Positions 23,857-32,982 of a stretch of 64,000 nt of DNA are shown here, piece after piece (position 1 is the first letter of the stretch; every line of letters starts with the position of its first letter). Origin of the DNA: Haloplasma contractile SSD-17B (GTDB lineage: Bacteria > Bacillota_I > Bacilli_A > Haloplasmatales > Haloplasmataceae); the NCBI RefSeq assembly GCF_000215935.2, contig NZ_AFNU02000001.1, positions 1 to 64,000 of the forward strand. The letters are read 5' to 3'. Both the position numbers and the translations under genes were made by a program. Under the pieces are notes generated by a model. The model saw only the letters and a list, made by a program, of their open reading frames with translations, did no database searches and was not told the origin of the DNA.

Positions 23857-24657
23857 ATGCGTCGCAGACGAATAAGGATAGGAAGTAAAAAAAGGTCACA
23901 ACATAGAAAAAAGAAACCTAAACTATTAAGATTATTTACATTTAAAAAAACGCTCTTATTTACAATCGTACTATTCGTTTTATTATTTCAATTAACTCGT
24001 TTATATTTTAAACCACCTGTACTCACATATGCAAAACATAAGTCAACATTTTATGCTACCTTAATTATTAATAATGCGATTCGAGATGAAGTAGTGAAGA
24101 ACATAGATATGGAAAAAATTGTTGTAGTAGATAATAAAACTGGAGGCGACGTATCAAGTATCATCATTAACACTTATGAGGTTAACAATATCTTAGCAAA
24201 AATGACGGATGAAATCCAAAGACAGTTAATTATTATCGAAAATGACCCCTCTAATGAACTACATAGTATAGATATACCTCTAGGGGTCATTTTAAATCAC
24301 GGTTCAATTGATAACGTAGGTCCTAAAATCAATGTAAAACTACATACAATAGGAAGTGTCCATACAGATATTGTATCTTCAGTTAAACCGTATGGAATTA
24401 ATAATACGTTAATTGAAATTATTTTAAAGACAGAGGTACGTTTTCAGGTCATGATACCATTTCAACAAGATGAAATACTGGTGACGACACGAACCCCATT
24501 ATTAATCAAAGTGATCCAAGGAGAAGTACCTAGATACTATTATACAGGTGGAGGAAATTATAGAAATCCGCCTCATGACTCAGGTGATAGTGGCGGTGAA
24601 GATATACCTGATGGTGGTGGTTCTGATGCGCCTAGCCCACAGACTCCTTCTGAATAA
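23857..24657 (+). CDS. yunB: sporulation protein YunB
   Basis: 266 residues with a very basic N-terminus (RRRRIRIGSKKRSQHRKKK), one transmembrane segment at about 31-50 and an outside domain that matches YunB: NAIRDEVVKNID, EVNNILAKMTDEIQRQL, IPLGVILNHGSIDNVGPKINVKLHTIGSVHTD. The last 35 residues are a Gly/Pro/Asp-rich tail not needed for the fold. In Bacillus subtilis yunB is a mother-cell gene whose loss impairs sporulation. Its presence here, next to yunC as in Bacillus, is either evidence of a sporulation programme or a retained relic. Confidence 0.82.
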   Translation: MRRRRIRIGSKKRSQHRKKKPKLLRLFTFKKTLLFTIVLFVLLFQLTRLYFKPPVLTYAKHKSTFYATLIINNAIRDEVVKNIDMEKIVVVDNKTGGDVSSIIINTYEVNNILAKMTDEIQRQLIIIENDPSNELHSIDIPLGVILNHGSIDNVGPKINVKLHTIGSVHTDIVSSVKPYGINNTLIEIILKTEVRFQVMIPFQQDEILVTTRTPLLIKVIQGEVPRYYYTGGGNYRNPPHDSGDSGGEDIPDGGGSDAPSPQTPSE

Positions 24658-25026: not shown

Positions 25027-25806
25027 ATGTATAAAGGTTATTTAATCGATCTAGATGGTATAGCCTATAAGGGTACAACGGTTATTGAAAGTTGTATCGA
25101 TTTCATTAACTATCTAAAAGAACACAATATTCCTTTTGCCTTTATTACTAATAATTCAACAAGGCACAAGAGGGATGTTTATTCTAAATTAACCAAAATG
25201 GGTTATGATATAGAGCAGGACAAAATTGTAACTTCGAGTATGGTAACAGCAGAGTATATAAAGAATCATAAGAAAGATGCAACTGTTTTTTTAATTGGTA
25301 TGCAAGGGATTCATGATGAATTAATGAATCACAATCTGAAATTAGTTGAAAACAACGCGGACTACGTAGTCATCGGACTAGATTCAAGATTAACCTATGA
25401 AAAGTTAGCAGTAGCATCGCTTGAAATTGCAAATGGAGCAACGTTTATTTCAACAAATATGGATTACATGTTTCCATCTGAACGCGGGATTATTCCAGGT
25501 AACGGTTCTATAACTAAAACATTGGAATATACAACAGGAGTTAAGCCCATTGTGATGGGAAAACCTGAACGGGCAATGCTTGATTATGCATTATCTATTC
25601 TTAAGTTAAAATCTGATGATGTTGCTATTGTAGGGGATAATTATCATACAGACTTAATGCTTGGTATAAACAATGGTGTTGATACATTATTTGTTGAAAC
25701 GGGTGTCATGTCGCGAACAGACTTAGAACAGTATACAAAAAAGCCAACTCATATAGTCAACGATTTATCTGAATGGATTAAAATATGTCAAGGAATCAAA
25801 ATCTAG
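25027..25806 (+). CDS. yutF: HAD-IIA (NagD/YutF-like) phosphatase
   Basis: 259-residue HAD-superfamily hydrolase with the C2 cap of the NagD/p-nitrophenylphosphatase group. Motif I is IDLDGIAYKG with Asp8 and Asp10 as nucleophile and acid; motif II is FITNNST; motif III lysine lies in MGKPE; motif IV is VGDNYHTD. In motif I an Ile stands where the family nearly always has Thr (DxDGT), a mild change that leaves both aspartates. It starts immediately after yutD and ends before a strong bidirectional hairpin. The natural substrate is a small phosphoester, not predictable here. Confidence 0.88.
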   Translation: MYKGYLIDLDGIAYKGTTVIESCIDFINYLKEHNIPFAFITNNSTRHKRDVYSKLTKMGYDIEQDKIVTSSMVTAEYIKNHKKDATVFLIGMQGIHDELMNHNLKLVENNADYVVIGLDSRLTYEKLAVASLEIANGATFISTNMDYMFPSERGIIPGNGSITKTLEYTTGVKPIVMGKPERAMLDYALSILKLKSDDVAIVGDNYHTDLMLGINNGVDTLFVETGVMSRTDLEQYTKKPTHIVNDLSEWIKICQGIKI

Positions 25807-25958: not shown

Positions 25959-26744
25959 TTAATAGAAAAAAATGCCCCTTGTAATTGTTTGAACCTTACT
26001 GCTTAAATAGACCGAATCATAGTCGCAAACTCCTTGAAGATCACCACGCGGAACTTGTACGTGTATAAGTCCATCACTAGCGATCACTTTTTTATTTTTT
26101 AAAATGGATAGTACTTCGCATATTTCTAGATCCGTGGGATCATCTTTTACTTCTCCATCAATACAGTCTAAACAAATGAATGAAGGTGTCTTTTGTCTAA
26201 TGAAGAAAAATCTATTATTAGATCGTTTTGTTATGAATGAACGACCCTCTAATTTAAATTGTGCACGATCAAGGGTAATTGAATAATCAGTATGGTTTGG
26301 TTGTGAACTAAAAGTATTTACATTAGACTCATTCATATAAATTGTCTCTTCTGTGTGGATATCAGGCAACTTATATTTCACAGATGAATTTGTATTTTTA
26401 ATGCGACATACAAGTATAATCGTATTCCCGTCTATGTTTAACTCTAATTGATTTTTCGTTTGCTTTTCTAAGAGATAAGTAGCTATAATTCTTAATGAGT
26501 CATCCGTAACTGAAACATTTTTGCCATCCCTATTATATGCTTTTACAAAGGGGATAGGACGATATTTTTCATCAACAATTAGAATCCCATCTGAACCAAT
26601 TCCGTATCCTACATGACATATATTTCTAGCAAGTTGGCTTAAGAGGATACTTTTGTTTAGAGACTCCTCATGTATAATGATCCAAGAATGCCCGTTAGTT
26701 TCCATTTTCGTATACGGAAATTGCAAATTATCAACTCCAAACAA
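25959..26744 (-). CDS. diaminopimelate epimerase-like protein lacking the catalytic cysteine motifs
   Basis: 261 residues that follow the DapF fold order: an opening FPYTKMETNGHSWIII (DapF: F.KMhG.GNDFv.i), CHVGYGIGSDGILIV (h.GiGaDGl..v), VKAYNRDGKNVSVTDDSLRIIATYL (rifN.DGSeaemCGNg.RC.a.y), and a C-terminal VQVPRGDLQG...VYLSSKVQTITRGIF (v..pGG.L......v.l.G.a..v..G). At the first active-site cysteine the CGN triplet reads TDD. No ACGTGA-type motif surrounds the second one; the nearest cysteine is in LEICEVL. It should not epimerise diaminopimelate. It lies where Bacillus has dapF, between yutF and yutI genes, so it is probably the positional orthologue turned to another use or decaying. Confidence 0.65.
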   Translation of the reverse strand: MFGVDNLQFPYTKMETNGHSWIIIHEESLNKSILLSQLARNICHVGYGIGSDGILIVDEKYRPIPFVKAYNRDGKNVSVTDDSLRIIATYLLEKQTKNQLELNIDGNTIILVCRIKNTNSSVKYKLPDIHTEETIYMNESNVNTFSSQPNHTDYSITLDRAQFKLEGRSFITKRSNNRFFFIRQKTPSFICLDCIDGEVKDDPTDLEICEVLSILKNKKVIASDGLIHVQVPRGDLQGVCDYDSVYLSSKVQTITRGIFFY

Positions 26745-26823: not shown

Positions 26824-27057
26824 ATGACTGAAATCGAACAACAAGTTAAGGAAATATTAAAAAAAATTCGCCCATATATCCAACGTGATGGCGGAGATGT
26901 AGAGTTTGTAAAGTTAGATGAAGATGGAATTGTCTATGTACGGTTGTTAGGAGCATGTGTTGGGTGTTCAGCTGCTGATAGTACAATCAATGACGTAATT
27001 GAACAGATATTAGTAGAAGAAGTACCCGGTGTAATAGCCGTTATGCAAATAGATTAG
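26824..27057 (+). CDS. yutI: NFU-type Fe-S carrier, YutI
   Basis: 77 residues consisting only of the NifU C-terminal domain. The cluster-binding pair is in GACVGCSAAD (CxxC near residues 41-44), preceded by the family's IRPYIQRDGGDVEFV. It binds a 4Fe-4S cluster between two monomers and passes it to client enzymes, downstream of the SUF machinery encoded at 12128-17421. It is diverging from the DapF-like gene and ends in a strong terminator. Start after AAAGGAGTG. Confidence 0.93.
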   Translation: MTEIEQQVKEILKKIRPYIQRDGGDVEFVKLDEDGIVYVRLLGACVGCSAADSTINDVIEQILVEEVPGVIAVMQID

Positions 27058-27172: not shown

Positions 27173-27634
27173 TTAATTACGAGTACGATAAAGTGCTTGT
27201 TGAATTTTAGTTAAATTAGACTCAATAATTGGAATGTTAATGTATAATAAGTTTAGTGACTTCTCCATATCATATTTAATGTAATGTAAGAACCGATCAT
27301 AAAAATAAATTGGAAATAGACAGAGTCCTAGAAACTGATCGTTCGAGATTTTTTTATTAAATAGCCATTTTTTTATGTCCTCATGACTAAGTTCTCGTTT
27401 ATAGATATTAGGAATGGTGTTTAATTCTTCTGCCACAGTCGGATCGTAGTTGTTTTTCTTTAAGATAATAATGCTATTTTCTGCTAAATTGGAAAAATAT
27501 AGATACAATGAGCGAATATATAGTGGCATGTTTTTGTAATTATTGGTATAATAAAACTCAAACTCATCTAAAATATTAATTAGATTGTACTTAAAATAGT
27601 TTAGCACTTGATTTGGAACTTGGTCTTGGTTCAT
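27173..27634 (-). CDS. hypothetical protein
   Basis: 153 residues, all-helical in appearance and rich in Leu, Ile, Asn and Tyr, with no signal peptide and no cysteine-based or nucleotide-binding motif. FLGLCLFPIYFYDRFLHYIKYD and an amphipathic C-terminal helix are the most notable stretches. I do not recognise a family. It is a single gene facing yutI, with AAGGATGAAAT before its start codon, and Bacillus has nothing comparable at this point in the conserved neighbourhood. Confidence 0.6.
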   Translation of the reverse strand: MNQDQVPNQVLNYFKYNLINILDEFEFYYTNNYKNMPLYIRSLYLYFSNLAENSIIILKKNNYDPTVAEELNTIPNIYKRELSHEDIKKWLFNKKISNDQFLGLCLFPIYFYDRFLHYIKYDMEKSLNLLYINIPIIESNLTKIQQALYRTRN

Positions 27635-27699: not shown

Positions 27700-28200
27700 A
27701 TGTCTAAAATTAAAATTAACGATAAGGAATTACGTGAAAAATGTGTAACGATTCTTAGTGAACGTGGAGTTGAAATAAAAGATATTGCAGAAATTACTTA
27801 TGAAATACAAAAACAATATTATCCAGATTTGACGTTAGAAGAATGCATCGAGCATGTGAATGCTGTCCTTGATAAAAGAGAAGTGACACATGCTGTTATA
27901 ACAGGATTAAACCTTGATATGCTTGCAGAACAAGGTCATCTAGTGGAACCATTATCAACAATAATGCTTAACGACTATCCTCTATATGGAATAGATGAGG
28001 TACTTGCTTATTCAATTGTTAATGTTTATGGTTCAATTGGACTAACGAATTTCGGTTATGTCGATAAGATAAAACCAGGTATCATCGGTAGAATTGATGA
28101 ACTAGGTAAAGAGACAGGAAACTGTAACACTTATTTAGATGATATCATAGGAGCAATTGCAGCAGCAGCAGCTAGTAGAATTGCACATACTAGACTATAA
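27700..28200 (+). CDS. yutG: phosphatidylglycerophosphatase A-related protein YutG
   Basis: 166 residues of the YutG/PgpA-like family: ECIEHVNAVLDKREVTHAVITGLNLDMLAE, PLSTIMLNDYPLYGIDEVLAYSIVNVYGSIGLTNFGYVDKIKPGII and a C-terminal TYLDDIIGAIAAAAASRIAH. Unlike PgpA of Gram-negatives it is not strongly hydrophobic, as in Bacillus YutG. A role in phospholipid head-group removal has been suggested for relatives but is not shown here. It precedes a membrane phosphatase-like gene and is in the Bacillus-like yut/yui order. Start after GAAGG. Confidence 0.8.
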   Translation: MSKIKINDKELREKCVTILSERGVEIKDIAEITYEIQKQYYPDLTLEECIEHVNAVLDKREVTHAVITGLNLDMLAEQGHLVEPLSTIMLNDYPLYGIDEVLAYSIVNVYGSIGLTNFGYVDKIKPGIIGRIDELGKETGNCNTYLDDIIGAIAAAAASRIAHTRL

Positions 28201-32209: not shown

Positions 32210-32298
32210 ATGTGTTAATCATAAAAAAAGAAAAAATTACTGTTCCTAATGATAGATATTAAACCACTTATATTCATATAATAATAAAGGTGATTTAT

Positions 32299-32982
32299 AT
32301 GAAAAAAATAGTAACGATTCTAATTTTATTGTTAAGTATTTTATTTTTATTAGATTTAAACAAGGATGCAGCTGCAGAACAGCGATATAACAATTATGTC
32401 GTTTATCTTGATGCAGGACATGGTGGATATGATGGTGGAGCTAGTACTCGCGATGGGGCACAGGAAAAAGACCTAAATTTAGCTATATCTTTATATTTGC
32501 GAAACTATTTAGAAAGTGTCGGTATTAAAGTTCTAATGATACGAGATACAGATATTTCGCTAACGGATGGTAGTGAACGGACTAAAAAACGTTCTGATAT
32601 GATGAATCGAATTAAATTAATAAGGGAGTCAGATGCTGATTTATTCATTTCTATTCATATGAACGCTTTTCCTAGTGGACGTTGGTATGGTTCACAAACA
32701 TTTTATAATTCACAGGATCCGAATAATAAACTGATAGCAGAAGCAATTCAGAAGAATTTAAAAGATACTTTAAAAAATACCTACCGTAATGCAAAACCTT
32801 CTAATAATCTATTTATTTTGAAATATAGCGAAAAAGTTGGGGCATTAGTAGAGGCTGGGTTTTTATCAAATAGTAGAGAAGGAAGATTATTGCAAAAACC
32901 CATTTATCAACAAAAAGTAGCGTATGCAATATTTCTTGGAATCATTGAATACTTCGATCAAACAACGAATAGTTATTCGTAA
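32299..32982 (+). CDS. N-acetylmuramoyl-L-alanine amidase, CwlD-like
   Basis: 227 residues: an N-terminal signal or anchor (about 4-22) and an Amidase_3 domain. Zinc ligands are His in YLDAGHGGYDGGA, Glu in AQEKDLNLA and His in FISIHMNAF; the catalytic Glu is in ALVEAGFLSN. It hydrolyses the bond between muramic acid and L-alanine in peptidoglycan. Size, domain content and lack of cell-wall-binding repeats match CwlD, which makes muramic-delta-lactam in spore cortex, more than vegetative autolysins. The ATG at 32299 has AAAGGTGA upstream. It stands alone. Confidence 0.85.
   Translation: MKKIVTILILLLSILFLLDLNKDAAAEQRYNNYVVYLDAGHGGYDGGASTRDGAQEKDLNLAISLYLRNYLESVGIKVLMIRDTDISLTDGSERTKKRSDMMNRIKLIRESDADLFISIHMNAFPSGRWYGSQTFYNSQDPNNKLIAEAIQKNLKDTLKNTYRNAKPSNNLFILKYSEKVGALVEAGFLSNSREGRLLQKPIYQQKVAYAIFLGIIEYFDQTTNSYS

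What the first reader, a model, noticed from the sequence alone, without database searches (positions are those of the whole stretch)
25959..26744. DapF-fold protein without the catalytic cysteine motifs at the dapF position
The landmarks of diaminopimelate epimerase are readable (KMETNG, GIGSDG, YNRDG), but CGN is TDD and the second ACGTGA motif is gone. The gene keeps the Bacillus dapF neighbourhood and an intact frame, which points to a new, non-epimerase role rather than simple decay. If the organism lacks a DAP-type wall, this would be a repurposed relic.
Basis: partly seen in the sequence, partly recalled or inferred. Interest (0 to 1): 0.68.

Follow-up and report, generated by a model that had tools for sequence, protein, structure and literature searches.

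The report
Catalytically dead DapF relative in Haloplasma
The wall-less bacterium Haloplasma contractile keeps, at the ancestral dapF position, an intact gene for a diaminopimelate-epimerase-fold protein whose catalytic machinery has been lost while a normal dapF sits elsewhere, so it is probably a retained 'dead enzyme' rather than a working epimerase or rotting debris.

Summary
The ORF (25959-26744, minus; likely start TTG 26726 with GGAG 8 nt upstream) is a highly diverged DapF. It scores 51 bits against a cut-off of 115. CGNG is TDDS, ERG is gone, and the second Cys motif is destroyed. GIGSDG and YN-DG remain.

The genome matches Haloplasma contractile SSD-17B (34 contigs; one contig equals the published N50). 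It is published as wall-less, but it keeps the whole DAP pathway, a DAP-type MurE and a second, canonical dapF in the lysine operon.

Four other Haloplasmataceae hold orthologues at the same place. Two of these genomes have no other dapF and keep both cysteines, so the locus encodes the ancestral epimerase. Of three genomes with both copies, one is intact, one lost the first Cys, and Haloplasma lost nearly everything. Three more, with only the canonical gene, have cleanly lost this one.

The H. contractile branch is long, yet the frame is open. Neutral decay to this identity left no open frame in 300 simulations. A retained non-epimerase protein is therefore the best reading. What it does is unknown; a binding or scaffold role is inference.

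The parts
25959..26726 (-). DapF-fold pseudoenzyme gene (255 codons from TTG 26726; the reported ORF runs to 26744)
   Evidence: first residue aligns with residue 1 of the syntenic relatives
26735..26738 (-). Shine-Dalgarno GGAG, 8 nt before TTG 26726
26586..26603 (-). retained motif GIGSDG (residues 48-53)
26523..26537 (-). retained YNRDG (residues 70-74); N71 is the distal substrate-binding Asn (Asn66 of Anabaena DapF)
26496..26507 (-). former catalytic CGNG, now T80-D-D-S83 at the start of the predicted helix 81-94
26118..26165 (-). former second catalytic region (C194 to C209); ERG and CGTG lost; T204 caps the predicted helix 205-217
26824..27057 (+). NifU-type (yutI) gene, divergent neighbour, conserved beside the locus
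25027..25806 (+). yutF-type HAD phosphatase, convergent neighbour
27173..27634 (-). uncharacterised syntenic gene found in all eight Haloplasmataceae
27700..28200 (+). yutG/CobZ-like gene used as synteny anchor

Best explanation
This is the vertically inherited dapF of the Haloplasmataceae, still an epimerase in some relatives, which in Haloplasma contractile has become a pseudoenzyme. Shown: orthology by place and tree; loss of the proximal-carboxylate, acid/base and Glu-Arg residues needed for the epimerase reaction; a second intact DapF in the lysine operon that can supply meso-DAP; a single open frame with a ribosome-binding site despite a very long branch. Inferred: after redundancy the protein was released from catalysis but kept as a folded, expressed protein, with both catalytic helices now starting with ordinary helix caps (T-D-D-S and T-D-L-E). 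It most likely acts by binding, either as a partner of another protein (for example heteromerising with the lysine-operon DapF) or as a ligand-binding regulator. E. coli DapF, which with both cysteines removed still binds and stimulates RppH, is a precedent for a catalysis-free role. The binding step is a guess with about one chance in three.
For: Same place and orientation in G001, G004, G005, G006; clean absence at the same block in G002, G003, G007. Clade with the four syntenic relatives 98/96, apart from the lysine-operon DapF clade 100/100; shared YRPIP[FY] stretch absent from other DapF in the alignment. DapF score falls stepwise: 141.9, 136.0, 132.1, 107.1, 51.3 bits; own lysine-operon copy 278.7. 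17 of 41 family-conserved columns kept, against 34, 34, 34, 30 in the orthologues; N19H, CGNG to TDDS, ERG lost, residues that bind substrate in solved DapF (PMC12039745). Neutral evolution to 31% identity gave 5 or more stops in all 300 runs; 95% of neutral runs hit a stop before 0.073 substitutions per site. Branch 8.2 times the mean of the others, the highest of 19 neighbourhood genes. Model pLDDT 79, best PDB match DapF 2otn TM 0.72. RppH precedent PMC4227774.
Against: No expression, binding or activity data. No second genome of the same genus is held, so selection on the H. contractile gene itself could not be measured. The structural model leans on the homologous alignment; without it the prediction fails (pLDDT 30). 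C194 may still correspond to one catalytic Cys. H. contractile is diverged in neighbouring genes too (ratios 1.5-6.6).
Confidence: 0.68

Rival explanations
1. A recently released pseudogene: the gene became redundant, changed fast under weak selection and has only lately become neutral, so stops have not yet appeared.
For: A canonical DapF is present in the same genome. Three relatives deleted the gene altogether and another lost the first Cys. The branch is the longest of the neighbourhood.
Against: A neutral phase longer than about 0.07 substitutions per site is unlikely without a stop, so nearly all of the divergence arose under protein-level selection. The other old duplicates, dapA2 and dapB2, did not decay. 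A ribosome-binding site is kept.
Confidence: 0.2
2. An enzyme with new chemistry on the DapF fold, using Thr/Asp/His rather than two cysteines, as PhzF does with Glu/His/Asp.
For: Both former Cys positions became Thr-Asp in one register, and N71 and N150 of the distal site remain. PhzF shares the fold.
Against: The Pfam PhzF family does not match. Residues at the proximal site are helix-capping in type, and acidic side chains would repel a substrate carboxylate. No second sequence with the same motif was found.
Confidence: 0.08
3. Still a DAP epimerase with an unusual active site.
For: The orthologues of G004 and G006 are probably working epimerases with a changed motif, C[VI]NG.
Against: The first Cys, Asn of CGNG, Glu-Arg and Gly-Thr of CGTG are all gone, and the organism has a canonical copy.
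Confidence: 0.04

Closest known systems
DapF, diaminopimelate epimerase (TIGR00652, PF01678), in particular the Bacillaceae dapF next to yutI/nifU
   Same: fold, gene position, GIG[AS]DG and YN-DG motifs, length
   Different: no CGNG, no ERG, no usable CGTG; scores below both curated cut-offs
Syntenic DapF of other Haloplasmataceae (G001, G004, G005, G006)
   Same: orthologue: same place, YRPIP signature, one clade
   Different: those of G004, G005 and G006 keep both cysteines and pass the DapF cut-off; G001 is intermediate (LSINGLS)
E. coli DapF as non-catalytic activator of RppH (PMC4227774)
   Same: a DapF-fold protein acting without its catalytic cysteines
   Different: that is a side role of a working enzyme; no RppH link was tested here
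Ser/Ser DapF-like proteins of Bacteroidota and Clostridium (SGNG / ASG[ST]S)
   Same: DapF fold without the two cysteines
   Different: all other active-site residues kept, passes the DapF cut-off, not related closely to this gene

Membership tests
Diaminopimelate epimerase DapF (TIGR00652 / EC 5.1.1.7) | family profile score above the curated cut-off | tested here: not met
   51.3 against 114.65 bits; Pfam 28.5 against 34.7
Diaminopimelate epimerase DapF (TIGR00652 / EC 5.1.1.7) | first catalytic Cys in CGNG | tested here: not met
   T80-D-D-S83, ungapped alignment
Diaminopimelate epimerase DapF (TIGR00652 / EC 5.1.1.7) | second catalytic Cys in CGTG at a helix start | tested here: not met
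   either T204, or C194 separated by ten residues from the helix; no CG[TS] in either register
Diaminopimelate epimerase DapF (TIGR00652 / EC 5.1.1.7) | Glu-Arg binding the distal amine and carboxylate | tested here: not met
   ERG lost in all alignments; residue roles from PMC12039745
Diaminopimelate epimerase DapF (TIGR00652 / EC 5.1.1.7) | DapF fold | tested here: met
   pLDDT 79, best PDB matches are DapF, TM 0.72; the model depends on the homologous alignment
Diaminopimelate epimerase DapF (TIGR00652 / EC 5.1.1.7) | orthology to dapF | tested here: met
   synteny and clade 98/96
Diaminopimelate epimerase DapF (TIGR00652 / EC 5.1.1.7) | epimerase activity on LL-DAP | not testable with these tools
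   needs an assay
PhzF-type Cys-free isomerases (PF02567) | PhzF profile match | tested here: not met
   no PF02567 match listed at E up to 10
Ser/Ser DapF-like group | SGNG and ASG[ST]S motifs | tested here: not met

The most novel reading that the evidence does not exclude
A maintained DapF pseudoenzyme that took on a new, non-catalytic job in a wall-less, contractile bacterium, for example regulating the lysine-operon DapF or another cytoplasmic partner, after the lysine operon made the ancestral epimerase redundant.
Probability: 0.4. Interest if true: 0.6.

Novelty: new variant of a known kind. Interest (0 to 1): 0.42.

Why it matters
It gives a small natural series for the step from enzyme to pseudoenzyme: sole copy and intact (G004, G006), duplicated and intact (G005), duplicated with one Cys lost (G001), duplicated and dead (H. 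contractile), deleted (G002, G003, G007), all at one locus. It also warns that 'dapF' at the dapF position cannot be read as epimerase. None of the papers returned by the searches here is about a DapF pseudoenzyme, judging by titles and abstracts.

Tried and rejected
Hidden frameshift restoring the motifs: tblastn of the four relatives finds one frame end to end and no second frame. Horizontal replacement: rejected by synteny, clade and the shared YRPIP signature, with the caution that the long branch makes the tree alone weak. Absence of the DAP pathway: rejected. Meso-DAP dehydrogenase as an alternative supply in G004 and G006: no match over cut-off. Closer relatives: direct genome-contig scan with the protein found none, and the family holds eight genomes only. 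Fold from sequence alone: uninformative. Correlation of intact cysteines with absence of a second dapF: suggestive, but only eight genomes.

Full report
Observation. The minus-strand ORF 25959-26744 exists and is open for 261 codons. The likely start is TTG 26726, with GGAG 8 nt upstream; it aligns with residue 1 of the relatives. NCBIfam DapF matches at 1e-13 but with 51.3 bits against a cut-off of 114.65. Pfam matches only the first half, under its cut-off. At the second motif two registers compete: default alignments keep C194 with a 10-residue deletion before it and a 10-residue insertion after it, while an almost ungapped register puts T204 on the Cys. The model starts its helix at 205, which fits the second register. 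Either way no CGTG-type site remains.

Organism. The genome has 34 contigs and contig 4 is 347,868 bases long. The published Haloplasma contractile assembly has 34 contigs and N50 347,868 (PMC3855842), so G000 is taken to be that strain. The nearest named records are Haloplasmataceae. The species is reported to lack a cell wall (PMC7301438).

DAP metabolism. H. contractile carries lysA, lysC, dapF, asd, dapA, dapB, dapH, an aminotransferase and an amidohydrolase in one cluster on contig 4. That DapF has CGNG and ACGTG and scores 278.7 bits. Second copies of dapA and dapB lie elsewhere and are above cut-off. MurE of the DAP type with DNPR is present. The pathway is therefore not missing, and the window gene is redundant.

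The locus in relatives. All eight held Haloplasmataceae keep the block yunC-yunB-yutD-yutF ... nifU-(27173 gene)-yutG or the parts of it their contigs cover. Five carry the DapF-like gene at one point and in one orientation; G002, G003 and G007 have the same block without it. Allobacillus dapF sits beside nifU, yutG and yutF too, so this is the ancestral place. G004 and G006 have no other DapF, no meso-DAP dehydrogenase over cut-off, yet have dapA, dapB, dapH and DAP-type MurE. Their syntenic gene passes the DapF cut-off and keeps both cysteines as C[VI]NG and SCGSN. It is probably their working epimerase; this is inference from genome content. G005 has both genes and keeps both cysteines. G001 has both and has lost the first Cys and the Arg of the first motif (LSINGLS). 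H. contractile has lost nearly the whole site.

Tree and rates. The five syntenic proteins form one clade (98/96) apart from the lysine-operon DapF clade (100/100); the H. contractile branch is 5.83 against 0.09 to 0.37 in the others, so its exact position is unsure. With five genomes only, its branch is 8.2 times the mean of the others, the highest of 19 genes of the neighbourhood (range of the rest 1.5 to 6.6).

Selection. Neutral evolution of the G005 gene to 31% identity gave 5 or more stops in each of 300 runs (mean 12), and the first stop came before 0.073 substitutions per site in 95% of runs; indels were not simulated, so this is conservative. Hence most of the divergence must have built up under protein-level selection, though a short recent neutral phase cannot be excluded. 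Changes in the first 120 residues are milder than neutral ones (mean BLOSUM62 -0.05 against -0.72, s.d. 0.20). Between G001 and G006 pairwise dN/dS is 0.20, the same as between G004 and G006, although G001 lacks the first Cys; pairwise values average over time. No close relative of H. contractile is held, so its own gene could not be tested this way.

Fold and site. With 54 sequences the model has pLDDT 79 and its best PDB matches are DapF structures (2otn, TM 0.72); without an alignment the prediction fails. In solved DapF the substrate is held by Asn13, Asn66, Gly76-Asn77, Asn164, Asn197, Glu215-Arg216 and Gly225-Thr226 (Anabaena numbers, PMC12039745). Here Asn66 (N71) and probably Asn164 (N150) remain; Asn13 is H19, and Cys75-Gly76-Asn77, Glu215-Arg216 and Gly225-Thr226 are lost; Asn197 depends on the register. 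The two helices that hold the carboxylate now begin T-D-D-S and, in the second register, T-D-L-E, which are ordinary helix-capping sequences (reading of the sequence, general knowledge).

Mechanism. Committed view: a retained pseudoenzyme that works by binding. The precedent is E. coli DapF C73A/C217A, which has no epimerase activity yet binds RppH tightly and stimulates it (PMC4227774). Which partner or ligand is bound here is unknown. Rivals are a very recent pseudogene, a new chemistry, and a still active epimerase, in falling order.

Novelty. Searches of the paper library returned no report about a DapF pseudoenzyme, judging by titles and abstracts; the library is partial. As a kind, dead paralogues of enzymes are well known, so this is a new variant of a known kind.

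Noticed in passing
L035, L037, L042, L044, L049, L055, L061, L063, L069, L070, L072, L076, L077, L083, L085, L092: A clade (99/98) of DapF-like proteins in Bacteroidota, Clostridium and Neobacillus has Ser at both catalytic Cys positions (KSGNGLR / ERGAGFTLASG[ST]S) with the rest of the site intact. The two tested pass NCBI's DapF equivalog cut-off (241.7 and 231.5 bits), so they would be named epimerase. The neighbouring genes listed for six loci look different from one another.
   Followed up: partly
L193:15726-17243 (G000 contig 3) and L121, L142, L127: PMC7301438 states that H. contractile lacks murE and murF. The genome holds two DAP-type MurE homologues above cut-off (518.4 and 477.8 bits; the first with DNPR) and two MurF-like ligases that fall below the murF cut-off (237.6 and 236.1 against 288.6).
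   Followed up: partly
window 27173-27634: Gene for a 153-residue protein conserved at this place in all eight Haloplasmataceae, without Pfam or NCBIfam match; second fastest on the H. contractile branch.
   Followed up: partly
window 23857-24657 and 32290-32982: Sporulation-type genes yunB (155.6 bits, over cut-off) and cwlD (220.6 against 221.55) in a bacterium published as wall-less.
   Followed up: no
L193 422-12735 and L194 13066-18208 (contig 3): Between murD and ftsW/murG lie repeated cassettes of about 1,080-1,100-residue exported proteins with membrane and ABC-type genes, probably the 'gene insertions' mentioned in PMC3855842.
   Followed up: no
L031 (JAENYC010000022.1): A metagenome bin labelled Haloplasma contractile (same locus as G001) is in a different genus from the window's genome by the held classification and only about 27% identical in this protein.
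   Followed up: no
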